52,310 nucleotides of DNA from Gemmatimonadota bacterium (GTDB taxonomy: Bacteria > Gemmatimonadota > Gemmatimonadetes > Gemmatimonadales > Gemmatimonadaceae): positions 1 through 52,310 of the forward strand of contig JAQBPV010000189.1 in assembly GCA_028287345.1 (NCBI GenBank). Direction: 5' to 3'. The notes under the pieces are model-generated. The model was not told the DNA's origin. It did not search any database and saw nothing but the letters and a program-made list of their open reading frames with translations. Below, one piece after another: positions 35,901 through 50,197 of this stretch (position 1 is the stretch's first letter; every line of letters begins with the position of its first letter). The position numbers were made by a program, and so were the translations under genes.

Positions 35901-36033
35901 GATTAGCTCAACGATACTCAGCCGGCTGGTGACACCCGTGATGTACATGATACTGCCACCGCCGTTGGACGCGGCGCGGGACGGAGACAGCACGCCCAGC
36001 GAGGCAACGGTTCTGCAACCTTCACCGGCGTAG
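32941..36033 (+). CDS. RND-family efflux pump (AcrB/hydrophobe-type)
   Basis: 1030 residues, twelve TM helices and two large periplasmic loops. Start MSITAFAVRNRQFMIVVF, porter-domain motifs (YPGASPVDLEQLIVDPVEKRI), and TM4 VIALGLLVDDSIVVVENIARFM with the paired acidic residues of the proton relay; the second half repeats this with GFVALVGIEIKNSILLVDF. It exports drugs or metabolites by proton motive force. Its stop is only 11 bases from the convergent end of the polyketide operon, so export of that product is conceivable, though the TetR control argues for a separate inducer. Confidence 0.94.
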   Translation: MSITAFAVRNRQFMIVVFIALLAMGVASILAIPRAEDPSFTFPNFTVIAVYPGASPVDLEQLIVDPVEKRIRGLDDVRDVKTSIVDGLAVISAEFDFSVDPDKKYDEVVREVNALRPSLPQDMARLDVIKSSAADVNVVQLALVSELASYEELDRQARELRDELERVPGVKRSQVWAYPRREVRVAIDLGKLAELHIPVAQVLGAIGGESANIPGGGIDAGGRKFNVKTSGSYRDVAEVKATVIGGGHGATVRIGDVADVRWAYEEQSSLARFDGKRSVWVTANMKDGQNIVAVRNVIVERLDAFEKTLPRSIALGRGFDQSKNVQARLTRLLEDFGIAIVLVLITLLPLGFRASAIVMVSIPLSLAIGVTLLNATGFTINQISIVGFVIALGLLVDDSIVVVENIARFMRSGYNRVDAAIAGTQQIFVAVLGTTATLIFAFVPIVMLPEASGKFIRGLPVAVIFTILASLLVSLTVIPFLASLLLDERENAHGNVFLRYLNRGIELSYSRFLHVALARPLATVAIALALFLGSLALVPRIGFSLFPKAGTPQFLVTIEGPEGASLAATDSAVRFVERVLGARPSVTHTYANVGRGNPLIYYNVFEKNEKASYGEVFVLLDRVTTGTPAMFDSLRTTFDQYAAARIVLKEFENGPPIEAPIAIRIKGKNLDTLRVLAAQLEKTIAGVSGTRSIGNPIRVARTDLKLDVDRAKAGLLGVPTVEIDRTVRLGIAGLTAGRLRTSDGQEYDVTVRLPRGERQTLDALDKTYVTSVSGSLIPLKQVAGLSFESSPPVIQHFDGERSVTITSDVVTGYNTNAVTQQILGRLASWTLPAGYTRTAEGELQSRQRSFGGLVTAILIAVFGILGILVLEFKTFRGMLIVASVIPLGVVGGIVALLLSGYTLSFTAMIGFVALVGIEIKNSILLVDFTNQLREEGSGLQEAIEEAGRIRFLPIVLTTLTAIGGLLPLALQGSGLYSPLAWVIIGGLISSTILSRLVTPVMYMILPPPLDAARDGDSTPSEATVLQPSPA

Positions 36034-36044
36034 TTCGACCGCCG

Positions 36045-39000
36045 TCAACCGGGATTTGGTACTTCCCTGCGTGCCGCCACCACGCGGCTGCTGAGTGGAG
36101 TCACGACACCTCGCGGTTCCTGCTCCCAGCGCATCACCGTCGCTCGGCGCTGCGCGGCGCCCTCGAGTGCATGCGCGAGCTCGTCGAGTCCAGCCAATGG
36201 CCGCACCGTCGGGATCTTCACCTCCACGCGCGTGCGCGTTCCCTCCGCGGGCCGCACGAGCATCGTGTCCTTCCCGCGCTCGCCGATCGCCAGCTCGCCG
36301 AGAATCGTCCAACCACGCTCGCGCGCGAACGCTGGCGTCGTGAGTCCGAGAACGAGCGCGTCGGCGCCGTCAACGTTCGACCGCAGCATGCACGCGAGCA
36401 TCACGTCCGCCGTCCCGCACGCGAGCCACCGTTCGGCGGCGCCGAGCGTCTCGATGATCGATCGGCTCCCGGCATCGATCACGGCGTTGGGACCGTGCAG
36501 ATCGAACAGGCTGGCCACGCGAGCGGCGGCAATGTTCGGAAGAAGCCCCATCAGCGTGTGCGGCGTCGCCGGCAGCGTGCTTGCACCGATGCGCTCGTGC
36601 AACGTGTTCGCCACGCGATCGGCGTCGGCGCGCGCAAGGCCGAGTTCCGCAGAATTCGCGGTGAGCACATCACGCAGCATGTCGCGGTAGATCCGATCGC
36701 TCGCATCCGTGCCGCGCGCGGTGCGGCCCACCATGCCGGCCACCACACCGGTGCGCTCCCGCCAGATGCGCCAGTTTGCGAGACTCGACGTGACCGCCTC
36801 CACACCGGCAACGCTGAGCAACTGGCTGACATCGAGTTCGTCCACGACTTCCGAGCGAAGTCTTGACGCGAGCGACGACCGGCCGCTGGTGAGATGACGC
36901 GTTGTGTCGCGGGGCGACATCCGCGAGATGCCCACAACGGCCAGCGGCGCACGCGGAAGCTCGACGGACGTGTCATCCGCCAGCTTCCGGTGATACGCCT
37001 TCGACGCTGCCTCGATGACCGCATGCGCGTTCGTTCCGCCCAGACCAAACGCACTCACGCCCGCGCGCCGTGGTTCGCCGTCCACATTGGGCGGCCACGC
37101 GCGCGACGACGCCGGCACCTCGAACGCGGAACTGTCGACGAGCGGCGTGGTGTAATCCGCATCGATCTCCGGCTGCGGTGGCACCACGCGCTCTTCGAGC
37201 GCGCGACAGACCTTGGCGATCGAGGCTGCGCCCGCCGCCCAGACCGTATGACCGATCGACGCCTTGACGCTTTGCAACGGCCGCCGCGTGGACGATGCCC
37301 CACTCTCGTCGCCGAAAATCGCCTGGAGCGCCTCGACTTCCGACGCGTCGGATGCGGGGTCAGAAACTCCGTGGCCTTCGATGAGCTGAATGGTCGCCGG
37401 CTCCACGCCGGCGTTCGCATAGGCGCGCCGAATCGCGAGCGCCTGACCTTCGGCGTTCGGCTCGCTGACCGATGCTTTTCTGCCGTCGGACGACAGCCCG
37501 ACGCCTCGAATGACCGCGCGAATCCGCTCGCCATCCACAGCATCGGAAAGACGTTCGAGTGCGAGCAATGCCACGCCCTCGCCGAAGACGACACCATCGG
37601 CGCGACGCCCGAATGGCGACGCGGCGGAGCCGAGCAGTCCTTCGAAGAGCGCGTAGAGCGGATGCCAGCTCGCACCCGGGGTGAAAATGCCGCCAACGAT
37701 CACGATGTCGCTTTCCATCGTGCGCAGCGATTTGATGCCGAGGTCCACGGCGTACAGCGAGGATGCGCACGCCGCATCGACGAGCAGCACTTCCGTCCGC
37801 GATCCGACGAAGCGGTCCACCACGGCGGCGAGTGCAGCGGACGCATCGAGCGCGCGCGGATCGGCGTCGGCCAGTCCAGCGAGCGTGTCCAAACCCGAAC
37901 TCACCGCGTCGCGCAACGACTGCGGCTCGTCGAGGACGGCGATTCTCTGGCGGACGCGATCGAGCAGCGCGCGCTCCTCGTGCTCGCGCATCCCCTCGGC
38001 GCTCCCGCCAAGAATGCAGCGGACGCGTCGCGCGCTGGCCGGTCCGCCACCATCGAGTGGCGGCATGCACTCGCGTAATGCAACCGCGAGCATGCGCTGC
38101 GTACTCGTGAGGCGCTCGAACTCATCCGTCGCGAACGGAATGCGCGGGTGATGATCGACGTCGCTGACCGTGGCGGAGGCAACGCTGCCGCCGGGGTCCC
38201 ATGCTTCCGTGTCAAACGGCTCGTGATCTCCGATTGCGCTCTCGCCGGCCACCACGTTGCGCCAGTACGCCGCAAGATCGCCCGCACCAGGAAGCACGCA
38301 GCCGATCCCGGTGACGGCCACGGGGCTGGGACCCGCACTTTCTCCAATCGCCATTGGCGGCGCGGGGACAACACGGTCGTCAGTCGACGGCGTGACTGCC
38401 GCCGGCCGCGTCGCTCGTTGTGCGAGGACGCTCGCGGCATCCGCGAGTCGCATGCTGAGCGTCTTTTGCTTCGCCGGTGCGGTGCCGTTCGCGGGCTTGC
38501 CAGAGAGTATTCCACCGATACGACGTGTGAGCGCGCCCGGGCCACACTCCACGAAGTACTCACAGCCAGCGCGCCGCAGCGTCCGCACCGCCGCATCGAA
38601 GTCGGACTCGCGCAGCGCGCGCGAGGCGAGGAAGCTGGCGAGCGGAGTGTCGGGGCCGAGCAGTCCGCCGGCGAGCGGCGAGTACAACTGCACACGCAAG
38701 CTGCGGAACTTGAAGCGTCCGAGTGCGCGCTCCAGTTCCTGCGCGGCGGCGCCCGGTGTCGCGGGTTGTGTTGAACCAGGCAGCGTGCCGAGCGCCCGTG
38801 CGCGCTGCGCGATAATCTCGAGGCCCGTGTTCACGTCGAAGGCACCGGCGACACACAACGCCGAGAGCTCGCCCCACCCATGGCCGAGCACGACGTCGGG
38901 GCGAATGCCGCGGTCGTGCAACGCCTCGGCGAACAATACGCCGCTTACGAATGCGCCCAGCTCCGCGAGCTCGGGGCGCCTTTGCAGATGCGCGTCGTGT

Positions 39001-39863
39001 TCTGCGATCGAGTCCGCGTCCACGAGCGGGAAGAAGCTCCACTTGTAGTACCGGCGCGCGACCGCATCCGCCTCGAAGATATACGAGCTCGACTCCGGCA
39101 TCGCGGCATACAACTCTCGGAGCAGTTGTGCGTTGTAGCCGTCGCTGCCTGGAAATACGAATGCCAGACCCGCTCCGCCCTCCGCGATGACCGGAGCCGC
39201 GAATTCGGGAATGGGGCCGAGCATGCTGCTGCGGCGCGGAGGCCGCGCCTCCGCTGCATCGAATTGCGCCGTGCGCCTGACCACTCCCGCTACGCTCGGT
39301 CGTATCGTCGCGCTCGCCCGGAAGATCACGCTCGAGCGAACGGTCGGACGACGCGCAGGCTCGGGACTCGGCGCTGCTGCTTCGGAGCCGCTCGCGATCC
39401 GCGCGCCGTGCGCGAGGACGTCATCGGCGAACAGGGATGCGACGGACGGACCGCCAGCGACGGCATTCGTCGCGAACGATGGAGTAGGCTCCGCATGCTT
39501 GCTGCACCGCTCGTGCATCGCGATCGGCAGCGGCGCGTCGTCGCCGGAAGGAGTGAGGCATGCCAGTGTGTGAAATCCGCATGCGACGGCCGCGCCGTTC
39601 TGATCGATGGCGCGCACACACACGCGAACCGCCGAGGCACCGGCAGCCTCGAGCGACACAAGCAGTGCGATACGGTCGTCCGCCGTCACGGGTGCGAGCG
39701 TGCGCACGTACTGATCTCGCTTCAGCCAGATGAAGTCGGAATCTGTGCCGATCACCGCCTTCCGACTCGCGTCGTGAAAAGCGGCTTCCGTGAGAAACGT
39801 GTCGCGCCCGACGATGGTGAGCTCGCCGGCCGAGATCCGATATGGAAGCGAAACGAAATTCAC
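36045..39863 (-). CDS. Megasynthase 2: degenerate hotdog, inactive AT, KS, chain-length-factor-like
   Basis: 1272 residues from a GTG at 39863 behind GAGGAG. Residues 1-110 are a worn hotdog domain related to the N-terminus of megasynthase 1. The AT (about 232-450) reads LGHGWGE, with Gly329 where the nucleophile Ser should be, and lacks about 68 residues including the HPFH catalytic His. The KS (about 513-955) keeps Cys699 (VDAACASS), His831 (IEGHG) and Lys867/His872 (VKASIGH), so it should condense. A second KS-like domain (about 972-1205) has Ser1133 in place of Cys, as in chain length factors. No KR, DH or ACP. Last gene of the operon, 25 bases after the ACP-thioesterase gene. Confidence 0.88.
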   Translation of the reverse strand: MNFVSLPYRISAGELTIVGRDTFLTEAAFHDASRKAVIGTDSDFIWLKRDQYVRTLAPVTADDRIALLVSLEAAGASAVRVCVRAIDQNGAAVACGFHTLACLTPSGDDAPLPIAMHERCSKHAEPTPSFATNAVAGGPSVASLFADDVLAHGARIASGSEAAAPSPEPARRPTVRSSVIFRASATIRPSVAGVVRRTAQFDAAEARPPRRSSMLGPIPEFAAPVIAEGGAGLAFVFPGSDGYNAQLLRELYAAMPESSSYIFEADAVARRYYKWSFFPLVDADSIAEHDAHLQRRPELAELGAFVSGVLFAEALHDRGIRPDVVLGHGWGELSALCVAGAFDVNTGLEIIAQRARALGTLPGSTQPATPGAAAQELERALGRFKFRSLRVQLYSPLAGGLLGPDTPLASFLASRALRESDFDAAVRTLRRAGCEYFVECGPGALTRRIGGILSGKPANGTAPAKQKTLSMRLADAASVLAQRATRPAAVTPSTDDRVVPAPPMAIGESAGPSPVAVTGIGCVLPGAGDLAAYWRNVVAGESAIGDHEPFDTEAWDPGGSVASATVSDVDHHPRIPFATDEFERLTSTQRMLAVALRECMPPLDGGGPASARRVRCILGGSAEGMREHEERALLDRVRQRIAVLDEPQSLRDAVSSGLDTLAGLADADPRALDASAALAAVVDRFVGSRTEVLLVDAACASSLYAVDLGIKSLRTMESDIVIVGGIFTPGASWHPLYALFEGLLGSAASPFGRRADGVVFGEGVALLALERLSDAVDGERIRAVIRGVGLSSDGRKASVSEPNAEGQALAIRRAYANAGVEPATIQLIEGHGVSDPASDASEVEALQAIFGDESGASSTRRPLQSVKASIGHTVWAAGAASIAKVCRALEERVVPPQPEIDADYTTPLVDSSAFEVPASSRAWPPNVDGEPRRAGVSAFGLGGTNAHAVIEAASKAYHRKLADDTSVELPRAPLAVVGISRMSPRDTTRHLTSGRSSLASRLRSEVVDELDVSQLLSVAGVEAVTSSLANWRIWRERTGVVAGMVGRTARGTDASDRIYRDMLRDVLTANSAELGLARADADRVANTLHERIGASTLPATPHTLMGLLPNIAAARVASLFDLHGPNAVIDAGSRSIIETLGAAERWLACGTADVMLACMLRSNVDGADALVLGLTTPAFARERGWTILGELAIGERGKDTMLVRPAEGTRTRVEVKIPTVRPLAGLDELAHALEGAAQRRATVMRWEQEPRGVVTPLSSRVVAARREVPNPG

Positions 39864-39888
39864 GAGTGCTCCTCGGTCGGCTCTGTCG

Positions 39889-41103
39889 TTACGCGCGCGG
39901 GCCTTTCGGCATCAGCATGCACGTCTCCGTTGCGTGCGCGTACAGTGCGCCAGCATCATCGAGCAGGCGGGCTTCGGCCGTTGCGATGCGCGAGCCACCA
40001 TGCACCACCTCCGCCACCGCACGCAGCCGTCCGACGTCCGCCGTTACTGCCCGTACGAGGTTGATCTTGAACTCGATCGTCGCGTAGCCGGTGCCTGGGC
40101 CAAGCGTGGAATGCACCGCGCACGCCATAGCCGTGTCGAGCACGGTTGCGGCCATTCCGGCGTGCACCACGCCGATGGGATTGTAATGCTGCTCGCCGGG
40201 GCGCACCTCCACGACAACTCGGCCGGGCTCCACATCGATGACAGTGAAATCCATCAGCGACGCCATCGGCGGCACCGGGTAATCACCGCGCATGATCGCG
40301 CGCAAGTAATCGATGCCCGCCATGTTCCGCGCCGCAGCGGCTCCGGCCATCGGATCGGACCACGAGATCGTGCGCGACCGCGCTTGTGTCGCCTTGGAGG
40401 CGAGTGGCGCAGCTGGCGCGACTACTGGCGGAGGTGCTGGCTCCGCTGTCCTCGCGAGCGGTTGCGCCAACGGAGGCGCCGCGTCGGAAACGCCATTGCC
40501 AAACGCCGCGACGATCTCGGTGATGCCGCCGATGGTGCGGAGTTGCGTCGGCGTGATACGATCGCGCAGCTCGGTACGCGGCGGGAGCGCATAGCGTTCG
40601 CGCAGCACGGAGAAGATCTCGCCGAGCTTCACCGAGTCGATACCGAGGTCGTCCTCGAGATCGGCGTCACTCGAGAGAATGTCGATCGGATATCGCGTAA
40701 GCTCGGCGAAAATCTGTCGGACCTCATCGAGTAGCGATGCCGATTGCGTCTGCGGCGCCACGACGGGCGGTGCCGGAGCGGCCGTGGTGACCGGCGCCGG
40801 TGCAGATGCCGGCGCGGCCGACGTCGAGGTATTGCCCGTGAGTATGACGACTGCCTCGGCGATACCGCCGATTGTCCGCAGTTGGGTCGCCGGAAAGCGC
40901 GCGCGCAATTCCGCCGTGGGCGGAAGGCCGTACCGCTCGCGCAACACCGAGAGGACTTCGCCAAGCTTCACCGAGTCGATGCCGAGGTCCTCTTCGATGT
41001 CGGCCGTGGGTTCGAGAATATCGATCGGATACCGCGTGACGTCGGCGATGATGCTGCGTACCTCGGCCGGTATGTCCAGGGCTACTGCGCTGCTGCTGTA
41101 CAT
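39889..41103 (-). CDS. Tandem acyl carrier protein fused to PaaI-type thioesterase
   Basis: 404 residues, strong AGGAGG site before the ATG at 41103. ACP1 is at about 10-90 and ACP2 at about 122-205. They are near repeats, each with TRYPIDIL and DLGIDSVKLGE; phosphopantetheine Ser44 and Ser157. Ala/Pro-rich linkers (TSAAPASAPAPV, PPPVVAPAAPL) precede a hotdog thioesterase (about 255-400) with YNPIGVVHAGMAATVLDTAMACAV, the PaaI/4HBT catalytic Asn-His-Gly...Asp pattern. This should be the only carrier for both megasynthases, which have none, and its thioesterase should release the chain. Carriers and release fused in trans are very unusual for an iterative type I system. Confidence 0.9.
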   Translation of the reverse strand: MYSSSAVALDIPAEVRSIIADVTRYPIDILEPTADIEEDLGIDSVKLGEVLSVLRERYGLPPTAELRARFPATQLRTIGGIAEAVVILTGNTSTSAAPASAPAPVTTAAPAPPVVAPQTQSASLLDEVRQIFAELTRYPIDILSSDADLEDDLGIDSVKLGEIFSVLRERYALPPRTELRDRITPTQLRTIGGITEIVAAFGNGVSDAAPPLAQPLARTAEPAPPPVVAPAAPLASKATQARSRTISWSDPMAGAAAARNMAGIDYLRAIMRGDYPVPPMASLMDFTVIDVEPGRVVVEVRPGEQHYNPIGVVHAGMAATVLDTAMACAVHSTLGPGTGYATIEFKINLVRAVTADVGRLRAVAEVVHGGSRIATAEARLLDDAGALYAHATETCMLMPKGPRA

Positions 41104-41862
41104 TTATGCCTCCTGAATGCCTGCAACAAATGAAAGAATCGTATTCGCGATGCGCGTGCAGCTCGCACGGCCCACGCGGTCGAACGGCAGCCGAATCGCC
41201 ATCGTCAGAAGTGCGCCGGCAGCGAGACGGTCGGCGACTTCGCGAGGACACGTATCAGCGAGGACTTCGACTTCGTCATAGCCCCAGAGCGTCGCGTGCG
41301 GCGCGCCGCCGGCTTTCACCAGGCACTCCTTGAGCGTCCAAAGGAGCGTGAAGAGCGCACCCGACACAGCTTCGCCACCGCGCGCGACCCAGTCGCGCTC
41401 ACGCTGCGAGTAGTGGACACGATGGAACGAGGGCGCGTGCTCTTCTATCGTCGCCACGTCGATGCCGATCGGCGTGCTGGTGCTCACGCCAACGGCTGTG
41501 GTGCCCGCTGAGTGGGCGATTGATAAATGGAGATCCGCCAGTGCGACGCCGCGACGGAACACACGTGGTGCGCCATCCGCGCGCGATACATCGATCTCCC
41601 GGTACTCCCCCGCTGGCAATTCCGCGAGCTGCTCGGCGCCGATCTCGCATATCGGTTCGTCGGATTGGAAGCCACGCAGCACGAGATACTTCGCGAGCAC
41701 GCGTGACGCGATGTGCTCGCGTTGCCGCGTGCCGTTCCGGATCGCGCCGACGCGCGCGAGCTCCGCTGGCGTCAGGCGCGCCAGCAGCGCGCGTGTCTCA
41801 TCCGCCTCAGGCACGCGCATGTGGTGGACGCGCACGCCAGTCACGGCCGGCGCATCGATCAC
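41104..41862 (-). CDS. 4'-phosphopantetheinyl transferase, Sfp-type
   Basis: 252 residues. Core motifs are LHLSIAHSAG, PIGIDVATIE (Mg-binding Asp135) and WTLKECLVKAGG (Trp175, Lys178, Glu179), as in Sfp/AcpT enzymes that transfer phosphopantetheine from CoA to carrier Ser. The second acidic residue of the usual GxDxE is Ala137, a change also seen in some active family members. The GTG start overlaps the megasynthase 1 stop (GTGA), and its TAA touches the ATG of the ACP gene, so it is made with its own substrate, the tandem ACP. Confidence 0.9.
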   Translation of the reverse strand: MIDAPAVTGVRVHHMRVPEADETRALLARLTPAELARVGAIRNGTRQREHIASRVLAKYLVLRGFQSDEPICEIGAEQLAELPAGEYREIDVSRADGAPRVFRRGVALADLHLSIAHSAGTTAVGVSTSTPIGIDVATIEEHAPSFHRVHYSQRERDWVARGGEAVSGALFTLLWTLKECLVKAGGAPHATLWGYDEVEVLADTCPREVADRLAAGALLTMAIRLPFDRVGRASCTRIANTILSFVAGIQEA

Positions 41863-44800
41863 GACATCACCCGCACCGCCGTCGAGCGCCGCGCGAGCGA
41901 CGGCCGCGCCGTCACGTCACGGAGCACCTGACCCTCCACGCGACGCGCCGTGCCGAATTCCACGAGCGCCAGCGTACGCCCTTCGCCATCGAGTGCCTGC
42001 ACCCATCGCGCGTTCAAGAGCTCCTTGTCCACTTCCGGCGCCGCGGCGACGATGAAGATGTCCCGCCCGGTGGCGCTCAACTGCTCTTCGCTGAGCGGCG
42101 ACACCACGCGAACGCGCTCGATCCGCTCCGGCACGAAAACCGGTGCAGTGCCGGCGCCGTCGGCCTCGACGACGGTGAGCCGTAACATCGCGTCGAGAAG
42201 CACCGGCGGTACTCTGAATTGCCGGAGCGACGACAACAGATGTGGCTGTGTGATCCGGAAGCGTGCGCGCCGCCGCTCGTCGCCGATGACGATGTCGTGC
42301 AAGCACGCGAACGTTCCGCGCAACTGGACGGGCGCGAGCGGATCCATGTAGGGATCGACGGCATTCCGGCCGGCGAACTCATGCCAGCGCGCCAACGGGC
42401 CGGAGAGCGTCACGGCGCGACTCGTCAACCGGACGTCGGCCTCGAAGTGCACGACGTCCTTCTGAAGTACAGCACCGTTCTTGTGCACGAAGTCGGAGAT
42501 GAGCGCAACGCGTACGATCGTCTCGGACGTCGTCTCGCTCACGACCTGCGCGACGCTCCGCAGCTCGAGCGGACGTCCTTCCGTCACCTTCACGAAGCGG
42601 GAGAGAATGATGTTCTCCGCCGCCGCCACGGCGAGCCCTGGCCGCGCAGCACACGCTGCTTCGATCACCATCGCCAGCTCGAAGGTGCCTGGCAGCGTCG
42701 GCGCGCCGTTGACGATGTGCTCGCCGAGATACGGCGCACTGGCGAGATCGAGCCGCCACGATGGTCCGGCAATCGTGACTGGCCCCGGCTCGAAGCCGGA
42801 GCGCGCAACCTGCACGTCGTCGGCGACATCCACACTCAACAGCCGGCGTTCCGCATTGGTGAGCAGAATGTTGGCCGCGGCGCTCGGACGACCGGCCATC
42901 AACGTGGCAAAGAGTGACCGGCCTTCGTCAGCAGTGATGCCGTGCAGGCCGCGCTCGGTGACGAGCACGGCGTACTCGCTGCCGCGCGTCATCCCGATGC
43001 CGTCCCACGCCAACCACGCGAGCGACGTCCAATAGCCCCCGTGCCCGGCAGCGTTCATGTGCTGCGCCAACCGGTTCAGTGCTTCATTGGCGGCGCCGTA
43101 ATCGGGCTGGCCATCGTTGCCGATGTAGCTGAACGCCGACGTCAACAGATGGTAGTGAACGTCGTTGACCACGTGCTTGCGGCACGCCGAGTACAGGTTG
43201 CGCAGCCCGCCGATCTTGGTGCCGATCGTCTGGCGGAAGTCGCTGAGCTTGCGGTTCTCCAACCGCGTGGAGATCTGTACGCCGGCGCCGTGCATCACGA
43301 GATCGACGCGTCCGAATTTCGCGGTGACCTCACCGACCACGCGATCCACATCGGCGGCGCTGGTAACGTCCACACTGCGATACTCCACCCGGCCCGGCAG
43401 TGTGGCCAACTGCCTGAGCACGCCGGCAATCTCGCGTCCCGCCGCGAACGACTGATACTGCCGCCGCATGGCCGCCGGCTTCACCGTGCGGTCGCGCGCC
43501 GACACCTCCTTATAGTATTCCGGCTCGTACGCCTTGAACCGCGCGGCGTCCATCTCGAGCACGTGCTGCGGCATGCTGAAGGGATCTGTCCGGCCAAGCA
43601 ACACGACGGTGCATCCGAAGCGCTGGAGCAGTTCCTCCGCCATGAGCGCCGTGACGCCACGCCCGCCCCCCGTGGCGATGACAACGGACTTGGCGTCGAT
43701 GTACGGGCGTCGATCCACAGTGACCTGCGGAACCGGGACGAGTCTCGTGTAGCGGCGCGTTGCGCCGTCATAGCACACCTCCACCGGGCCTGACTGCGCA
43801 ACGCCGAACTCGCTCGCGAGTTGAGCCAGCGCTTTCACCGGATCGAATGCGTCGGTGATGAGACTCTTGCACACCCCATGCGGCAGCTCGCGCGCCATTG
43901 CCTTCATGAATCCGCCGGCAAGTCCGGTGAACGCATGCAACTCCGCGCCAGCCACGCCACCGAGACACATCGTCGCGAGCGCCGTTTCGCCGGTCTGAAT
44001 TCGCGGATACGCATGCCGCGCCACCGCGAACAGTAGATCGAGCAACGCATCGCTGGGCGCCGAGAGATCGAGGAGCGAGTCGCCCTCGGAATGGCTCAGG
44101 TCCTTGACCGCAATGATGGCGTCGAAGCGCGCACAGTCGAGCGACGCGAGCGACTCGCGAATCGTGTCGTCTGTCGAGAGATCGACGCGAAACGTGTCGG
44201 CGAGCCCCAGCGCGGCCGGCGTGGCAACGTACGATCCCGGTGAGGCCAACATGCCGCGATCGCGGAGCGCGGTGAGCATCGCCGGTTGGTCCACGAGATA
44301 CAGCGGCGAGCGCGGTGTGCGCGGCGCCGTCTGCGGCAACGCGCTCGTGAACAAAGCCGGGGTGAAGAAGCCCACCGGCTCCGCCGCAGCTGCCAGTGCG
44401 GCCTCGACGACGGAGATATCTACCGCGCCGCTGACACGCGCGAGCAGACTGCTCCGGCGCTTGAGTGCTGTGGAGCGGCGCGTCGTACGCGGCGCGCGCT
44501 GCGGACGGCTGTCACGCGTCACCGTCGTCTCGAACCGGACAATCGCGGCTACGCCAGCGGTCGTCACGTCGTCCAGGGCGCGCGCGATCTCGGTGAGTCC
44601 AGACACGGTGGTGGCCGGCTGCGCGCCGCCCATCTCCACACGATGCAGTGTCGCCTTGCCGGTTCCGTTCGCGCCCTCGCCGTGAGGCGGCGACACGCGC
44701 AGCTCGCGAGCGTCGGCCCCAACCTCGAGGCGGCTCACCACAGACAACGCGTGCGAAGCCGCAAACTCCGGCGTCGTGATGGCCAGCAGGCAGACGCCGT

Positions 44801-47800
44801 CCGGCGGAAGTCCTTCGTCGAGACGCGGGTTTGCGGCCATCGTGCTCTGTACCGCACCCGCGAGCACGAGATCGCAATCGCCGGCAGCCAGCATGCGGCG
44901 CGCCATTCCGATCGCGGACTCGAACGAGCCGCGGCCAGCGTCGAGCACGACGTTGGCCCCCTGCAGATCGAAAAGGTTCGACACGCGTCCCGACGCGACG
45001 TTGGGCATGAAGCCGATCAGCGTATACGGATTGCTCGGCTGTGCGCCCTTGACCACAGCCTCGACGAGTAGCGCGCTGAGTCGCGTGAATTCGGTATCCG
45101 CGAGTTCGGCGGCGCCGCGCTGTTTCGCCAGGCTGCGCTTGAGCCGATCGATGTACACTCGGCTCGTCGATGCGGCGCCGTGCGCCGTCTTCGCCGTGGT
45201 GCCGAGTGCAATGCCGATACGATCGCGGAAGCTCTCCCAGCCGGTGACGCCGGCAAGCGCCTTGTCGGCGGCCATGGCGACGAGATACTGTCCGCCGTCC
45301 ATGTGCTCGGTGACATCGGGGAGCAGGCGCTTCTTTCCGGGAAGCTTGAGGCTGCGCCGCTCGAAATGTCGCTGGCCTCCGGCCTGCGCGGCGATGCTTC
45401 CGTCGACCCCGGGAAAGAGTGACCCCACACCGACGACGACAAGCGATTGCCGGGGTTGGGACGGCGGCGTGACGAAGCGACGATGGTACGCCGCGTCGTA
45501 CTCCTCGAGAATGAGATGCGCGTTCGTGCCGCCAAAGCCGAAGCCGTTGATGCCCGCGCGCCGCGGATTCCCATCGACGTTCGGCGTCCACTCCGCAAAT
45601 GAAGTGGGAATGACGAACGGTGATTCGGCGAGATGGAACGTCGGATGTGCGCTCACGAAGTTGTGCTGTGGCGGAACGCGTCGCTCCGTGAGTGCGCGCG
45701 CCACCTTGATGACCGACGTGGCGCCAGCGACCCAGCCAGTATGGCCGGTGAGCCCCTTTACGCTCTCCATCCAGATGGGCCTCAGGTCCGGGCGGCGATC
45801 GCCGAACGCAGTGCGCAGCGACTCGAACTCCGTGGCGTCGCCGACGGTTGTGCCCGTCCCGTGCGCCTCGATGTATTGAATGGAGTTCTGATCGATGCCC
45901 GTCTTTTCATACGCTCGCTTCATGGCGAGCACCTGCCCCTCGGAGCGCGGCACATTGACCGACGCCGACTTGCCGTCACTCGCGAGGCCAACGCCGCGGA
46001 TCACGGCGTGAATCCGATCGCCTGCGGCAATTGCGTCGGGCAGGCGCTTGAGAGCCAGAACCGCGGCGCCTTCGCCAAAGATCACGCCGTCGGCGCGTGC
46101 GTCGAATGGGAAGCAGCCGGTGGACGACAGCCCCTTGAACTGGCCGAACAGCACGTTGATCCCGGGTCCCGGTGAGAACACGCCGCCCGCAACAACGAGA
46201 TCGCTCTCACCGGCCGCCAGCATCTTCGCGCCGAGATCAAGAGCGTAGAGCGATGCCGCGCACGCGGCGTCGAGCAGCGTGACGTCGGCGCTTGCACCGA
46301 GCACACGCTGCACGACGCTCAGGTAAGTCGGATACGGCGCGAGCGCATCGGCCTCGCCGATCTCCATTTCGCCGAGCCCATCGAGCACTTCGTTCAGCGC
46401 GGCTTTGAGCGGCGCGGCTTCGTCGAGCATCGCAAGCGCATCGCGCACGGTGCGCATGGCGAGCGCTTCGTCGTACTCCTTGATGCCGTCGGCCGTGGAG
46501 CCGAGCAGGCAATGAATGCGCTTGCCGTTGGAGCCGGAGACAAGCGGAGCCACTGCGCCGTGCACGCACTGCACGAGTGCGTTGGCGAGCAACCGCTGCG
46601 CGCGGGTGAGCGCCTGGAACTCGTCGGCGGAGTACGGCAGACGCGGATCGCGCTCGATGGAGCGCACAATGCCCGCGAGGAGACTGTATGCCTTGTCCGG
46701 AACGACGTCGCCCGCGGACTGGAAGTCCGCCGACATCATGGGATCGAGAATGCTCAGATCACCGATGCCGCTTACGCCGGACCCGATGTTGCTCCACAGC
46801 TCGTCAGCGTCGCGTGCGGCAGGTAGCACGCAGCCGAGGGACACAATGGCAACGGGGATGGGGCCGTCATCGCGAAGGGAGACGGTGGGTCCCTTCGCCG
46901 CGCTCTCTGCGGGGCGCGGGTCCTTCGACTCGCTGCGTTCGCTCGGGATCACGCCTGGCTGCGCGACAGTCTCCGGCTCGTCGGGGAGAATCTTGCGCAC
47001 GATGCGACTGAGCGTCGCCCCTGCCGCGCACTCGACGAAGGTACGAACGCCCGCGCCATGCAATGCTTCCACCGTGGCGCGAAAATCGAACGCGCGCACG
47101 AAGTGCGACGACAGCACGCTGGCGACGTCCACGTTCGTCGGATAGAGCCCGCGTTCGATTGGCGAATACACGGGCGTCGTCAACGGACGATATGTGCGTC
47201 CGCGCAGCGCCGACTCGAAGAGCCTCACCGCGGGACGCAGCATGCGGGAATGAAACGGATGCCGGCTCTTGAGCACCGTGCCCATCGCTCCGTGCGCCGG
47301 TAGCTGGTCCGCAAGACGCTGGATGTCGGCCCTCGGGCCGGAGATCACCACCTGGTTGCCGAGATTGACGCCAGCCAGATCGACACCGCTCACACCGATC
47401 TTGCTCAACAGCTCTGCCGCGCGCGCCGGGTTCACGGACACGGCCAGCATGGCGCCGTCGCCGTATGCCGCGTCGCGCAGCGCGTTCACGCGCGCAACGA
47501 CCATCTCCACGCCTTGCAGTGCGTCGTACGCACCGCCGACACAGAGGGCGGCGAGCTCACCGAAGCTGTGGCCTACCAGCACGTCCGGCTTGGCGCCAAG
47601 CGCGATTCGCCGCTCGCCGATGATGACGGCGGCGAGAAAGATGCCGAGCTGGTCGAGCTCGGGACACTGCTTGAGAAGTGCGTCGTGCGCTTCGTCCGAC
47701 GTCGATTCCACGAGCGGCAGAAAGCCGTGGCCCCACGCCTCGCGTGCCACCTTGTCGGCGTGCGCGAAGTAACGGCGCGTGTCTGGCTCTGTAGCGTACA

Positions 47801-48491
47801 GGTCGCGCAGCACGGCGATGTCGTACGAGCCCTGCCCCGGAAACATGAAGGCGAGCGACATGCCGGGAAGCGGCGCAACGTCGGGCGTCCGGGGTGCCGC
47901 GCCAGCAGATGCAGCGCTCTTCTCGTCGCTCAGGATGCGCGGTTGCGCGCGCTCGGTGGCGACTTGCTTGCCAAGTTCGCAGATGGCGTCCGAGAACATC
48001 TCCTTCAGATACTTCCCGCCGGCATGGCACCGCTCGGCGTACGACGGCCCCGTGAGACGCTCGATCAGCTCGGAATGCTCGGAGATAAAATCGCCGAGGC
48101 CCGGCGGAAAGGGCGAGACCTCGTAGTTCGTCTTGTCCACGAACACGATCGTCTGGTATCCCGCGCACACCGGCTGCCCATCCTCGCGGACCACGCGGAA
48201 GCAGAGGCGGATGCTGGACCGCGTGCGCTCCTCCTGCGTCATCAGGATGCCGACTTTTTCGCCAAGCCGGACGGGCGCGATGTTCCGCGTATAGCCTTCG
48301 CGTGTCAGCAGGATCAGTTCGTCGAGCTCCGCGCGCGAGCCAGGCTTCGCTTCGGGGAGGATATCGAACAGCAACGTCTCCCGGCCGGCGCATTGGAACC
48401 GGAAGTTCGTGATGTAGTGGTGTGTGCCGTATGCCATCGTGTCTTCGAAGAAGACCTGATAGGGGACGGCAAAGAAGGACGGTGAAGTCAT
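41859..48491 (-). CDS. Megasynthase 1: hotdog-AT-KS-CLF-KR-DH iterative polyketide/fatty-acid synthase
   Basis: 2210 residues from the ATG at 48491 behind GGAG. Domains: hotdog, about 1-135 (FFEDTMAYGTHHY, recalling enediyne-type thioesterases); AT, about 212-500, active Ser309 (GHSFGE) and His414 (HPFH); KS, about 543-1000, Cys744 (DAACAASL), His877 (EAHGTGT), His917 (TGHTG); chain-length-factor-like domain, about 1015-1270, Arg1187 replacing Cys; PfaA-like KR with its structural half at about 1450-1600, cofactor loop TGGGRGVTA (1607-1615), Ser1785, Tyr1798; DH, about 1905-2185, His1925 (HIVNGAPTLP) and Asp2100. No ACP, enoyl reductase or thioesterase inside. It should make unsaturated chains on the separate ACP. 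The stop overlaps the PPTase start. Confidence 0.9.
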   Translation of the reverse strand: MTSPSFFAVPYQVFFEDTMAYGTHHYITNFRFQCAGRETLLFDILPEAKPGSRAELDELILLTREGYTRNIAPVRLGEKVGILMTQEERTRSSIRLCFRVVREDGQPVCAGYQTIVFVDKTNYEVSPFPPGLGDFISEHSELIERLTGPSYAERCHAGGKYLKEMFSDAICELGKQVATERAQPRILSDEKSAASAGAAPRTPDVAPLPGMSLAFMFPGQGSYDIAVLRDLYATEPDTRRYFAHADKVAREAWGHGFLPLVESTSDEAHDALLKQCPELDQLGIFLAAVIIGERRIALGAKPDVLVGHSFGELAALCVGGAYDALQGVEMVVARVNALRDAAYGDGAMLAVSVNPARAAELLSKIGVSGVDLAGVNLGNQVVISGPRADIQRLADQLPAHGAMGTVLKSRHPFHSRMLRPAVRLFESALRGRTYRPLTTPVYSPIERGLYPTNVDVASVLSSHFVRAFDFRATVEALHGAGVRTFVECAAGATLSRIVRKILPDEPETVAQPGVIPSERSESKDPRPAESAAKGPTVSLRDDGPIPVAIVSLGCVLPAARDADELWSNIGSGVSGIGDLSILDPMMSADFQSAGDVVPDKAYSLLAGIVRSIERDPRLPYSADEFQALTRAQRLLANALVQCVHGAVAPLVSGSNGKRIHCLLGSTADGIKEYDEALAMRTVRDALAMLDEAAPLKAALNEVLDGLGEMEIGEADALAPYPTYLSVVQRVLGASADVTLLDAACAASLYALDLGAKMLAAGESDLVVAGGVFSPGPGINVLFGQFKGLSSTGCFPFDARADGVIFGEGAAVLALKRLPDAIAAGDRIHAVIRGVGLASDGKSASVNVPRSEGQVLAMKRAYEKTGIDQNSIQYIEAHGTGTTVGDATEFESLRTAFGDRRPDLRPIWMESVKGLTGHTGWVAGATSVIKVARALTERRVPPQHNFVSAHPTFHLAESPFVIPTSFAEWTPNVDGNPRRAGINGFGFGGTNAHLILEEYDAAYHRRFVTPPSQPRQSLVVVGVGSLFPGVDGSIAAQAGGQRHFERRSLKLPGKKRLLPDVTEHMDGGQYLVAMAADKALAGVTGWESFRDRIGIALGTTAKTAHGAASTSRVYIDRLKRSLAKQRGAAELADTEFTRLSALLVEAVVKGAQPSNPYTLIGFMPNVASGRVSNLFDLQGANVVLDAGRGSFESAIGMARRMLAAGDCDLVLAGAVQSTMAANPRLDEGLPPDGVCLLAITTPEFAASHALSVVSRLEVGADARELRVSPPHGEGANGTGKATLHRVEMGGAQPATTVSGLTEIARALDDVTTAGVAAIVRFETTVTRDSRPQRAPRTTRRSTALKRRSSLLARVSGAVDISVVEAALAAAAEPVGFFTPALFTSALPQTAPRTPRSPLYLVDQPAMLTALRDRGMLASPGSYVATPAALGLADTFRVDLSTDDTIRESLASLDCARFDAIIAVKDLSHSEGDSLLDLSAPSDALLDLLFAVARHAYPRIQTGETALATMCLGGVAGAELHAFTGLAGGFMKAMARELPHGVCKSLITDAFDPVKALAQLASEFGVAQSGPVEVCYDGATRRYTRLVPVPQVTVDRRPYIDAKSVVIATGGGRGVTALMAEELLQRFGCTVVLLGRTDPFSMPQHVLEMDAARFKAYEPEYYKEVSARDRTVKPAAMRRQYQSFAAGREIAGVLRQLATLPGRVEYRSVDVTSAADVDRVVGEVTAKFGRVDLVMHGAGVQISTRLENRKLSDFRQTIGTKIGGLRNLYSACRKHVVNDVHYHLLTSAFSYIGNDGQPDYGAANEALNRLAQHMNAAGHGGYWTSLAWLAWDGIGMTRGSEYAVLVTERGLHGITADEGRSLFATLMAGRPSAAANILLTNAERRLLSVDVADDVQVARSGFEPGPVTIAGPSWRLDLASAPYLGEHIVNGAPTLPGTFELAMVIEAACAARPGLAVAAAENIILSRFVKVTEGRPLELRSVAQVVSETTSETIVRVALISDFVHKNGAVLQKDVVHFEADVRLTSRAVTLSGPLARWHEFAGRNAVDPYMDPLAPVQLRGTFACLHDIVIGDERRRARFRITQPHLLSSLRQFRVPPVLLDAMLRLTVVEADGAGTAPVFVPERIERVRVVSPLSEEQLSATGRDIFIVAAAPEVDKELLNARWVQALDGEGRTLALVEFGTARRVEGQVLRDVTARPSLARRSTAVRVMS
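46872..46951. repeat. Repeat-like hairpin element inside the AT-KS linker
   Basis: An 80-base segment encoding the odd linker VIPSERSESKDPRPAES of megasynthase 1 (about residues 514-545). It contains a perfect inverted repeat GCGAAGGGA/TCCCTTCGC (46872-46880 with 46890-46898) and a run CCTTCGACTCGCTGCG. The look is that of a dispersed REP-like element captured in frame. No second copy was seen in this window, so the repeat nature is inferred. Confidence 0.45.
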
Positions 48492-48565
48492 CACAGTCTC
48501 CGCGGACAGTCTCGGGGCGAAGATTGTATCATCCAAAGAGGGTGTACGCCATGCTGCGGCACATT

Positions 48566-50197
48566 TCACACGGCCGCGCCGCGCGCGATCCTTGTGCGCA
48601 GTCGTTCCGGCCAGAGCGCAGGGTCCTCCGCGGGATAGACGTTTAGCGACGGTCCGCCCGCATCGAGGAGGTCGTCCAACTCGCAGTCGAGCATCCGCTG
48701 CACCGTACGGAGTCCCGACCGTGTCGCACCAAGCACTCCGTGAAAGAGCGTGCTGGCACCGCACAGGGAGAGATTCTCGATGCCGGACTGCGAACGAAAG
48801 CCGAAGGGCCACGCCTGCCACCTGCTCTTCTCCGACCCGTATGTGTGGCCGTCGGTGCCGCAGGTGTAGAACTCGTTCGTGAGGGGAGTGCCCAGTGCGC
48901 GGAAGACGACGCGATCCTTGAAGCCCGGAAATTGGGCGTCGAGCGTCGCGACGAAGTTGTCCATCACGCGCTCCTTGAGTGCGTCGTACTCCGCACCGCG
49001 ACTGCCTTCCGGTGTGCCCGCATATTTGGCGAACGGCGCACGGTTGACCATCCGAAAGAGCTCGACCGTGTGCACACCTTTCCGTCGCGCCGTGGGATCC
49101 TTGAGCGACACCGCGGAGACGAACATCCCATCGAGACTTGTGTCGCGCGGGATCATCGGGGCGAACGCCTCTCGAAACGCCCGTTCGATGTCCGCGTCGC
49201 GAAACAACCAGTAGTTGCCCGAATCCATTCCCGCCTCGCGCAGATCCATGTCCACCGCCATGAACATGCTCAGCGTGGAGAGTGAGTAGCGCGTGCGATC
49301 CACCAGGCGGCGCGCCAACCACGGCACGTCGTCGGCATCCACGAGCTTGCCGAGCGTCACCGATGGATCAGCGTTGCTGAGCACGTGCGCGGCGCGCACC
49401 TCGGTTCCGTCGGCGAGCCGCACTCCGAGCGCGCGCCCACGTTCGACGAGGATGCGCTCGACGCGCGTGCTGAGGTGGATCTCGCCACCCGAGCGCTCGA
49501 GTGAGCGCACGAATGCGCGCGCGATCGCCGCGCCGCCTCCTATAGGGTAAAAGGCCCCTTCGAGATAGTGATTGAGGAGTGCCGCGTGAAAGCCTGCTGT
49601 GACCATCGACGGCGGCAACCCGTGATTGCCGCATCGCGCGTTGAGGAACGCTCGGCACAGCGGGTCGCGCACGAAGTGGTCGACGAGCGCGCGTCCATTT
49701 CTGAGCGCCCAGCGCGGCGTGAGCGTCGACCGTCGCAGTGCGTTCGCGAGATCACGACGGCGTCGTGCTTCCACGATCGCGACGAGCTCGCGCACCATGT
49801 CCTCACACGTGCGGAGCAACGCAGCGATACCTTCTCGGTCCGCCGGAAAGCGGTGCCCAAGCGCGGCAGCGAACGCGTCGCGGCCCTTTGGAATATCGAA
49901 CTGCTCGGCGCCGAGACGGACGTGATCGATGGCGTCCGGATTGACCTCGCTGAACTGGACGTCACCAGAAATGCCAAGGCCTTCGTAGACCCGACGCATG
50001 AATCCGTTCGGGCCGAACTCACCGAGGTAGTGTACGCCGCTGTTGAAGTGATAGCCGCCGAGCGTAAACGAGTGGCAGTAGCCGCCCGGCACGTAGTGTT
50101 GCTCGAAGACGATAACCTTGCGACCAGCGCGAGCGAGTGCAACGGCGGCCGTGAGTCCGCCGGCGCCCGAGCCGATTACGACGACATCGGCGTCCAT
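48566..50197 (-). CDS. FAD-dependent oxidoreductase, RetSat/CrtI-like
   Basis: 543 residues from the ATG at 50197, preceded by GGGAGGA. The FAD-binding start VVVIGSGAGGLTAAVALARAG is followed by VIFEQ-type FEQHYVPGGYCHSF. GAFYPIGGGAAIARAF and AHVLSNADP are typical of the phytoene desaturase, carotenoid isomerase and all-trans-retinol 13,14-reductase group. The C-terminal NLSLCGASTLFHGVLGATRSG completes the FAD site. Such enzymes desaturate, isomerise or saturate conjugated polyenes. As first gene of the operon, 74 bases before the megasynthase, it probably tailors its polyene product. No phytoene synthase or other carotenoid gene is present here. Confidence 0.88.
   Translation of the reverse strand: MDADVVVIGSGAGGLTAAVALARAGRKVIVFEQHYVPGGYCHSFTLGGYHFNSGVHYLGEFGPNGFMRRVYEGLGISGDVQFSEVNPDAIDHVRLGAEQFDIPKGRDAFAAALGHRFPADREGIAALLRTCEDMVRELVAIVEARRRRDLANALRRSTLTPRWALRNGRALVDHFVRDPLCRAFLNARCGNHGLPPSMVTAGFHAALLNHYLEGAFYPIGGGAAIARAFVRSLERSGGEIHLSTRVERILVERGRALGVRLADGTEVRAAHVLSNADPSVTLGKLVDADDVPWLARRLVDRTRYSLSTLSMFMAVDMDLREAGMDSGNYWLFRDADIERAFREAFAPMIPRDTSLDGMFVSAVSLKDPTARRKGVHTVELFRMVNRAPFAKYAGTPEGSRGAEYDALKERVMDNFVATLDAQFPGFKDRVVFRALGTPLTNEFYTCGTDGHTYGSEKSRWQAWPFGFRSQSGIENLSLCGASTLFHGVLGATRSGLRTVQRMLDCELDDLLDAGGPSLNVYPAEDPALWPERLRTRIARGAAV

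What the first reader, a model, noticed from the sequence alone, without database searches (positions are those of the whole stretch)
36045..50197. Candidate new class of KS-CLF megasynthase operon with all carriers in trans
Seen: five minus-strand genes with couplings or short gaps encode a RetSat/CrtI-like FAD enzyme, hotdog-AT-KS-CLF-KR-DH, PPTase, ACP-ACP-thioesterase, and a second hotdog-AT-KS-CLF. Known: KS-CLF pairs and this KR type belong to PUFA (Pfa) synthases, and single-module relatives make enediynes or heterocyst glycolipids; those carry ACPs inside the megasynthase. Inference: one live AT, one KR, one DH, two KS-CLF pairs and no enoyl reductase predict a conjugated polyene acid or lipid, possibly a pigment, finished by the FAD enzyme.
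Basis: partly seen in the sequence, partly recalled or inferred. Interest (0 to 1): 0.92.

Follow-up and report, generated by a model that had tools for sequence, protein, structure and literature searches.

The report
Carrier-split polyene synthase operon
A bacterium carries a five-gene operon for an unstudied kind of lipid-building enzyme whose carrier domains sit on a separate protein; relatives occur thinly scattered in very distant bacteria, and the best guess is that it makes a conjugated, probably coloured, polyene.

Summary
Five minus-strand genes encode a RetSat/CrtISO-like flavoenzyme, a 2210-aa hotdog-AT-KS-CLF-KR-DH protein, a PPTase, an ACP-ACP-thioesterase, and a shorter paralogue with a dead AT. 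No ACP was detected in any of the seven synthases; each of the six loci has ACPs on a neighbouring protein, fused to an SDR in the relatives and to a PaaI-type thioesterase here. In KS trees the seven group together (93/95 and 85/95, not starred); with a Paraburkholderia and a Streptomyces locus they form a clade (100/99, 100/100) apart from the PfaA and PfaC KS rows. The N-terminal hotdog's best solved sequence match is CalE7, the enediyne thioesterase. About 33 kb including the operon is absent from one congener. Best explanation: an iterative synthase of a conjugated polyene, inferred from KR+DH without an enoyl reductase; the product is untested. A new variant of a known kind (PUFA-synthase-like iterative synthases), not confined to the host's phylum. 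Eight searches of open-licence papers showed no description.

The parts
48566..50197 (-). RetSat/CrtISO/CrtI-like FAD oxidoreductase, 543 aa
   Evidence: TIGR02730 carotenoid isomerase 164 bits (cut-off 587), Amino_oxidase 99 bits
41859..48491 (-). Megasynthase hotdog-AT-KS-CLF-KR-DH, 2210 aa, no ACP detected
47952..48491 (-). hotdog domain (residues 1-180), motif DTMAYGTHH, nearest solved sequence CalE7
   Evidence: 4HBT_2 24.9 bits, just under cut-off
46947..47879 (-). AT domain, GHSFG (residues 205-515)
   Evidence: Acyl_transf_1 86.5 bits
45474..46859 (-). KS domain, Cys-His-His present (residues 545-1006)
44517..45449 (-). CLF domain, active-site Cys absent (residues about 1015-1325)
   Evidence: second ketoacyl-synt stretch; alignments
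43707..44504 (-). weakly conserved linker (residues 1330-1595); its counterpart in Azospirillum is a separate 269-aa protein; probably the KR structural subdomain
42822..43706 (-). KR domain, DYGAAN (residues 1596-1890)
   Evidence: KR 76.6 bits
41922..42794 (-). DH domain, HIVNGAPTLP ... LLDA (residues 1900-2190)
   Evidence: PKS_DH_N 27.9 bits
41104..41862 (-). Sfp/HetI-like phosphopantetheinyl transferase, 252 aa
   Evidence: ACPS 41.8 bits
39889..41103 (-). Trans carrier protein: ACP-ACP-PaaI-type thioesterase, 404 aa
40834..41064 (-). ACP1 (residues 14-90), DLGIDSVKLGE
40492..40737 (-). ACP2 (residues 123-204), DLGIDSVKLGE
39916..40272 (-). PaaI-type hotdog thioesterase (residues 278-396)
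   Evidence: TIGR00369 76.4 bits, over its cut-off of 36.6
36045..39863 (-). Decayed paralogue, 1272 aa: hotdog and AT degenerate (GHGWG), KS with intact Cys-His-His, CLF; no KR, DH or ACP detected
32884..36033 (+). RND efflux permease ending 11 bp from the operon's 3' end; RND pumps also flank the Azospirillum and Uabimicrobium loci. Possible exporter
   Evidence: ACR_tran 662 bits
31637..32944 (+). HlyD-type adaptor of the same pump (ORF ends not refined)
30519..31886 (+). TolC-type outer-membrane efflux protein of the same pump (ORF ends not refined)

Best explanation
An iterative type I synthase, a separate clade among PUFA-synthase-like KS-CLF enzymes, with its carriers on another protein. 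Proposed cycle: (1) the PPTase primes the two ACPs; (2) the single live AT loads malonyl onto them in trans; (3) KS-CLF condenses, the CLF limiting chain length; (4) KR and DH turn each 3-keto group into a double bond, and no enoyl reductase follows, so the chain becomes a conjugated polyenoyl-ACP; (5) the CalE7-like N-terminal hotdog and/or the PaaI-type thioesterase fused to the ACPs releases it; (6) the RetSat/CrtISO-like flavoenzyme isomerises, saturates or desaturates the polyene; (7) the neighbouring RND pump may export it. The second synthase is a duplicate that lost a working AT, KR and DH; with its intact KS triad it may act as an extra condensing step or as a structural partner. Shown by sequence: gene order, domains, motifs, carriers on a separate protein in six loci, KS clade, decay of the duplicate. 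Inferred: every catalytic step, the product and the export.
For: Domains and motifs. Orthologous proteins in A. argentinense (L046), U. amorphum and M. rosea, a second M. rosea locus and G767. An ACP model finds none in 7 of 7 synthases even at E 10, and finds 6 in cis in a control PfaA-like protein of U. amorphum. The model was built from ACPs of the window, Azospirillum and Uabimicrobium, so its hits there are by construction; Pfam finds those carriers independently. Both Minicystis loci and G767 are independent of the model. Hotdog profile: CalE7 first of 15 solved sequences up to E 10, with SgcE10 and DynE7 also listed; the predicted fold matches YbgC and CalE7/DynE7/SgcE10/EspE7. Precedent, main text read whole: RerA (KS-AT-ACP2-KR-DH) with RerB (PPTase-Y-TE) makes conjugated polyenes up to C22 nonaenes, and discrete ACPs were loaded in trans (PMC11563203). 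A RetSat-like gene also follows a different U. amorphum KS-AT-ACP-KR-DH-hotdog synthase, with an RND pump beyond it (L093).
Against: No chemistry. The genome may supply an enoyl reductase in trans (FabI- or PfaD-like, not searched). In the two relatives scanned (Azospirillum, G767) the SDR fused to the ACPs scores best against FabL, below its cut-off, so some chains may be partly reduced. The DH matches Pfam only weakly (27.9 bits), and Pfam shows no DH in G767. The hotdog is just under its Pfam cut-off and as close in fold to YbgC as to CalE7; the model is only pLDDT 65.9; all five aligned family hotdogs carry Met where, by my recall, the catalytic Asp of 4HBT enzymes sits. Absence of a detectable ACP is not proof: one paper reports that enediyne PKSs, too, show KR-DH order and no recognised ACP (PMC7692728, passage). 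The RetSat-like gene's best relative (46%, M. rosea 9984952-9986538) is not beside a PKS among the neighbours examined, though it is next to a nitronate-monooxygenase-family gene, the family of PfaD; 4 of the 6 family loci lack a RetSat-like gene.
Confidence: 0.6

Rival explanations
1. A PUFA-type or partly reduced long-chain lipid synthase: the same cycle with an enoyl reductase borrowed in trans, so the product is a membrane or storage lipid and not a conjugated polyene.
For: In the 44-row tree the family is sister to the PfaC KS (97/91). SDRs fused to the ACPs in the two relatives scanned score highest against FabL. Membrane desaturases sit in the Azospirillum and second Minicystis loci. 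In Minicystis the closest relative of the RetSat-like gene is next to a gene of the PfaD enzyme family.
Against: No ER recognised in the operon. The SDR is absent here and a thioesterase stands in its place. No PfaA-type match over the cut-off in the genome. The CalE7-like hotdog points to polyenes.
Confidence: 0.22
2. An enediyne-like or polyyne-like pathway: the polyene is a precursor that accessory enzymes convert to alkynes.
For: The Uabimicrobium locus has an ASPIC/UnbV protein and a DUF1702 protein, both over Pfam's cut-off, and P450s sit in 3 of 6 loci. DUF1702 proteins, thioesterases and P450s neighbour enediyne PKSs (figure legend, PMC7692728).
Against: The Uabimicrobium DUF1702, UnbV and P450 proteins and the Minicystis P450s have no match in the window at 1e-3. 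Domain order differs: AT before KS, and a CLF is present.
Confidence: 0.08
3. An ordinary Pfa/Hgl-type cluster already covered by the 20 published types, seen here in an unusual fusion order.
For: TIGR02813 PfaA is the best NCBIfam match of the large protein (462 bits, cut-off 1010). Shulse and Allen report many fusions and splits, and their type R is a single KS-MAT-CLF-ACP-KR protein with a PPTase gene (PMC3098273).
Against: KS clade apart from the PfaA and PfaC rows used here; no PfaA-type partner; carriers on a separate protein in six loci; the text of section 5 on the 20 types names no such arrangement (the figure is not held). Reference KS of each type were not available.
Confidence: 0.07
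4. A decaying operon that no longer makes anything.
For: The second synthase has lost a working AT, KR and DH and much of its hotdog. The stretch is absent from one congener.
Against: The first synthase, PPTase, ACPs and thioesterase are all open; the synthase and ACPs keep their catalytic motifs.
Confidence: 0.03

Closest known systems
Pfa (PUFA) synthases, PfaA/PfaC (Shulse and Allen types)
   Same: Iterative, KS-CLF pairing, ACPs that match the PfaA model, PPTase, KR and DH
   Different: One megasynthase with order hotdog-AT-KS-CLF-KR-DH; no PfaA KS, no ER recognised, ACPs on another protein; KS clade of its own
Type R of Shulse and Allen (KS-MAT-CLF-ACP3-6-KR plus PPTase)
   Same: KS, AT, CLF and KR in one protein with a PPTase gene downstream; scattered over distant phyla
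   Different: ACPs in cis, different domain order, no hotdog or DH named in the text; KS not compared here
Enediyne PKS (PKSE) with CalE7-type thioesterase
   Same: Single module with KR before DH and no ER, no readily recognised ACP (PMC7692728), CalE7-like hotdog; DUF1702/UnbV beside the Uabimicrobium relative
   Different: KS first, then AT; a carrier in cis and no CLF (recalled); no DUF1702, UnbV or P450 match in the window
RerA/RerB of Rhodococcus erythropolis PR4
   Same: Two ACPs, KR, DH, a PPTase and a thioesterase; makes conjugated polyenes
   Different: KS-AT-ACP2-KR-DH in one protein, no CLF named. RerA itself was not in my tree; a R. opacus plasmid synthase (L089) that I took as a possible relative groups with PfaA-type KS
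Type II polyketide synthases
   Same: KS-CLF working with a carrier on a separate polypeptide
   Different: There KS, CLF, KR and DH are separate proteins (established knowledge); here they are fused
Paraburkholderia ginsengisoli and Streptomyces NBC_01237 plasmid loci (L047, L088)
   Same: Nearest sister KS clade; AT, ACP, SDR, KS, CLF, KR, DH and a P450 in one cluster
   Different: AT-ACP on one protein and SDR-KS-CLF-KR-DH on the next; no convincing hotdog match

Membership tests
Canonical Pfa (PUFA) synthase | PfaA protein KS-MAT-ACPn-KR with tandem ACPs in cis | tested here: not met
   No ACP detected in either synthase; no PfaA-type match over cut-off in the genome
Canonical Pfa (PUFA) synthase | KS inside the PfaA or PfaC clades | tested here: not met
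   Joining with PfaA rows rejected, p-AU 9.4e-7; the four PfaC rows form their own clade 97/95. Sister to PfaC in the 44-row tree, unresolved in the 25-row tree
Canonical Pfa (PUFA) synthase | PfaD-type enoyl reductase in the cluster | tested here: not met
   None among the five genes; rest of the genome not searched for PfaD
Enediyne PKS | KS-AT-(ACP)-KR-DH order, no CLF | tested here: not met
   AT before KS, CLF present; KR before DH is shared
Enediyne PKS | CalE7-type hotdog thioesterase | tested here: inconclusive
   CalE7 is the top solved sequence (3.1e-06), but YbgC folds rank as high or higher
Enediyne PKS | DUF1702/UnbV cassette beside the PKS | tested here: not met
   U. amorphum DUF1702 and UnbV proteins have no tblastn match in the window at 1e-3; present in the Uabimicrobium relative
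Enediyne PKS | KS inside the enediyne clade | not tested
   No certain enediyne KS was obtained for the tree
Type II PKS | Discrete KS and CLF proteins with a discrete ACP | tested here: not met
   Only the carrier is discrete; KS and CLF are fused with AT, KR and DH
Shulse-Allen types A-T | KS inside one of the type clades | not tested
   Reference sequences of the types were not available
Iterative polyene synthase (functional class, e.g. RerA) | KS, AT, KR, DH and ACP without ER | tested here: met
Iterative polyene synthase (functional class, e.g. RerA) | Makes a conjugated polyene | not testable with these tools
   Needs expression and spectroscopy
Family described here (hotdog-AT-KS-CLF-KR-DH with trans ACPs) | Shared architecture, separate carriers and one KS clade in unrelated bacteria | tested here: met
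   6 loci, 7 synthases; clade support 93/95 and 85/95, below the starred level

The most novel reading that the evidence does not exclude
A hitherto undescribed, thinly spread lineage of iterative synthases that stands between type I and type II: all condensing and reducing domains fused in one chain (split again in Azospirillum), the carriers always separate and swappable (fused to an SDR in the relatives, to a thioesterase here), making new conjugated polyenes that each host finishes with its own set of P450s, desaturases, UnbV/DUF1702 proteins or RetSat-like flavoenzymes. In this strain a duplicated, AT-dead KS-CLF would add a second chain-length control.
Probability: 0.45. Interest if true: 0.75.

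Novelty: new variant of a known kind. Interest (0 to 1): 0.62.

Why it matters
If right, it adds a separately evolving architecture to the PUFA/enediyne group of iterative synthases, with discrete carriers that can be exchanged and assayed, and cultured organisms (Minicystis rosea, Azospirillum argentinense) in which product and mechanism can be tested. It would also link enediyne-type accessory genes (DUF1702, UnbV) to a KS-CLF synthase in a planctomycete.

Tried and rejected
Rejected: a Gemmatimonadota-wide system (both score only a few candidates per genome, and one search is a sample of the phylum); a canonical Pfa cluster; an ACP hidden in the megasynthase (an atypical carrier cannot be wholly excluded); the RetSat-like gene as a constant partner (2 of 6 loci; its 46% relative in Minicystis showed no PKS among the neighbours examined). 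Of 20 later loci not fetched because of a RetSat match (L087-L099 and L102-L108, L099 being a flank of the Uabimicrobium locus) only L093 has a RetSat-like gene.

Led nowhere: P0003 in viral contigs (no relative); DUF1702 against plasmids (none); two weak hotdog matches, G648 and G900, with no match to my family queries at 1e-5 in the 20-kb stretch around each (in the G900 stretch the window hotdog itself matches at 6e-5); paper searches for RetSat with polyketides and for thailandene-like polyenes. GC content gives no sharp border for the island. A third clade test (only the two window rows joined to PfaC) is rejected trivially, as it splits the family, and is not used. One Minicystis ORF first read as PPTase (L049:16560-17207) is in the wrong frame; the PPTase match is at 16726-17064. 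Neither an enediyne PKS nor a Shulse-Allen reference KS with known product was obtained.
Full report
What is there. The window is one whole contig (G000:C8) of an assembly of 6.08 Mb, 543 contigs, 91.8% complete, 5.6% contaminated. Its type-II-secretion F gene at 50455-51657 is 93% identical to genes in two same-genus genomes, so this end of the contig sits in its proper host. The five genes named in the finding are open and closely spaced. Pfam and NCBIfam support the domains; the hotdog is just under its Pfam cut-off and the DH just over.

Catalytic state. The large synthase (P0003) has AT GHSFG, a KS with Cys and two His, KR DYGAAN and DH HIVNGAPTLP. The CLF has no Cys at the active site. 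The second synthase (P0006) has AT GHGWG (Ser replaced by Gly, and a piece of the AT missing), but its KS keeps Cys-His-His. On an alignment of the seven family synthases, at positions invariant in the other six rows, P0006 keeps 12 of 32 (hotdog), 17 of 22 (AT, 3 more in a gap), 53 of 69 (KS) and 12 of 21 (CLF). The two window KS are each other's nearest rows (98/80, 92/85), which suggests a duplication in this lineage.

Relatives. P0003 against 40 relatives finds KS-type matches in every genome but no orthologue (best other score 203.5 bits over 264 residues). Its CLF region against 395 genomes of the phylum, own included and drawn as a sample, gives 34 genomes with a match at E up to 1e-6, own included; the best other is 34% over 145 residues. 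A plasmid search gave 1282 records with a match, one of them covering at least 80% of the query: Azospirillum argentinense p4, where the same protein is split into hotdog, AT-KS-CLF, a 269-aa protein and KR-DH, followed by ACP3-SDR and two fatty acid desaturases, with a PPTase and an RND pump next to it. The hotdog pair (A2) scanned against genome contigs matched 23 stretches, 2 of which encode relatives: Candidatus Uabimicrobium amorphum and Minicystis rosea (only two peptide patterns were used, so this is a lower bound). M. rosea has a second locus. The hotdog profile A5 found, in 329 sampled genomes of the M. rosea phylum, M. rosea itself and a weak match in G648; in 294 sampled genomes of the Uabimicrobium phylum, Uabimicrobium, one more locus (G767) and a weak match (G900). 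My family queries find nothing at 1e-5 in the 20-kb stretch around either weak match.

Loci in brief. Window: FAD, synthase, PPTase, ACP2-TE, second synthase, RND pump. Azospirillum: split synthase, ACP3-SDR, desaturases, PPTase, RND. Uabimicrobium: ACP2-SDR, a partial ACP-SDR, ASPIC/UnbV, a 505-aa unknown, DUF1702, synthase, P450, patatin, with RND and HlyD on the far side. Minicystis 1: synthase, a PPTase-like match (L049:16726-17064, E 2.4e-11), ACP2-SDR, P450. Minicystis 2: ACP1-SDR, synthase, desaturase-like, RetSat-like. G767: synthase, P450, PPTase, ACP2-SDR. No PPTase was seen in the Uabimicrobium and Minicystis 2 stretches with my queries.

Carriers. An ACP model finds no carrier in 7 of 7 synthases up to E 10 and finds 6 in cis in a control PfaA-like protein of Uabimicrobium. 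The model was built from seven ACPs of the window, Azospirillum and Uabimicrobium, so its hits there are by construction; Pfam sees these, and one in Minicystis 1, independently. The GIDS serine is present in both window ACPs, all three of Azospirillum, both of the Uabimicrobium ACP2-SDR, both of G767, the one of Minicystis 2 and the first of Minicystis 1; the second ACP-like stretch of Minicystis 1 has lost it, so that carrier protein has one usable ACP. Most of the ACPs share a TRYP motif near the start.

Phylogeny. In a 44-row KS tree the family of seven (93/95) joins a Paraburkholderia and a Streptomyces plasmid KS at 100/99, and this group is sister to PfaC-type KS at 97/91. In a 25-row tree the family has 85/95, the nine-row group 100/100, the four PfaC rows 97/95, and joining family and PfaA rows is rejected (p-AU 9.4e-7); the sister relation to PfaC is not resolved there. 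G767 is a long row and its place is unsure. The sister plasmid loci carry AT-ACP and SDR-KS-CLF-KR-DH proteins and a P450. The tree holds no certain enediyne PKS and no RerA.

Function. The family hotdog profile has CalE7 as first of 15 solved sequences up to E 10 (3.1e-06), with SgcE10 and DynE7 also listed. The predicted fold (pLDDT 65.9, from 3 sequences, residues 1-29 under 50) matches YbgC-type and CalE7/DynE7/SgcE10/EspE7 thioesterases alike, YbgC types first, so the fold alone does not decide. KR and DH without ER predict conjugated double bonds. RerA/RerB is the closest chemical precedent; I read its main text whole (PMC11563203). The RetSat-like enzyme belongs to a family that acts on linear polyenes (CrtI, CrtISO, RetSat: established knowledge), and a distant one follows a different KS-AT-ACP-KR-DH-hotdog synthase in Uabimicrobium. 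Against this, only 2 of 6 family loci have one, and the closest relative of the window's (46%, Minicystis, L100) is beside a nitronate-monooxygenase-family gene and no PKS in what I examined. RND pumps flank 3 of 6 family loci; the searched genomes G000, G398, G399, G767 and record W01 give 17, 27, 25, 9 and 4 ACR_tran matches, so such pumps are common and the link is suggestive only.

Setting. In the congener G001 the genes matching window 5.8-17.3 kb lie 1.2 kb from those matching 50.45-52.31 kb, so about 33 kb of the window, operon included, is an insertion here or a loss there. In two other congeners with long flanks (G004, G007) the tested window genes match only at the pilus-type end. 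GC is 62-68% throughout.

Literature. Shulse and Allen (PMC3098273, section 5 read in full, figure not held) list 20 types, all with at least one KS, ACP and KR; no arrangement named in that text has the hotdog-AT-KS-CLF-KR-DH order with separate carriers, type R (KS-MAT-CLF-ACP-KR plus PPTase) being nearest. Passages of the Minicystis rosea genome paper (PMC8436480, 12 of 21 places shown) treat its pfa cluster; those shown do not mention the two loci. Passages of PMC9582728 and PMC13291983, and of PMC7692728 on enediyne PKSs, were seen. Searches listed no description of this family; they cover open-licence papers only, and most listed papers were seen as listings.

Verdict. Real, conserved and, as far as these searches reach, undescribed; a new variant of PUFA-like iterative synthases. 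The conjugated polyene product is the best inference, not a result. Mended on checking: the Pfam standing of the hotdog, the by-construction part of the ACP control, the lost serine in Minicystis 1, type R and the enediyne 'lack of ACP' passage; none moved the odds.

Noticed in passing
window 17340-50450: About 33 kb (with the operon, the RND pump, a glucoamylase-like gene and an M20 peptidase) is missing between conserved neighbours in congener G001; probably a genomic island.
   Followed up: partly
window 46918-46952: The AT-KS linker of the large synthase holds a stretch reading VIPSERSESKDP; the DNA pattern occurs once in the whole assembly. From recall it resembles a short dispersed repeat of other bacteria.
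   Followed up: partly
G000:C327:207-1403: A second, 91% identical copy of the type-II-secretion F gene in the same assembly; perhaps strain mixture, fitting the 5.6% contamination.
   Followed up: no
L048:4910-9968: In Uabimicrobium amorphum an ASPIC/UnbV protein, a 505-aa unknown and a DUF1702 protein, reminiscent of the enediyne cassette, stand directly before the synthase.
   Followed up: partly
L093:7662-15451: Uabimicrobium also has a KS-AT-ACP-KR-DH-hotdog synthase overlapping a RetSat/CrtI-like gene by 4 bp, with an RND pump beyond.
   Followed up: partly
L100:8800-13037: In Minicystis rosea the closest relative of the window's RetSat-like gene (46%) lies next to a nitronate-monooxygenase-family gene, the enzyme family of the PfaD enoyl reductase.
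   Followed up: no
L047:8019-19710 and L088:7851-18156: Sister clusters on Paraburkholderia ginsengisoli and Streptomyces NBC_01237 plasmids: AT-ACP, SDR-KS-CLF-KR-DH, P450.
   Followed up: partly
L049:938-7155: Beside the first Minicystis locus lie an epimerase-family gene, a Rieske oxygenase, squalene-cyclase-like ORFs and a P450-ferredoxin, a likely sterol gene group.
   Followed up: no
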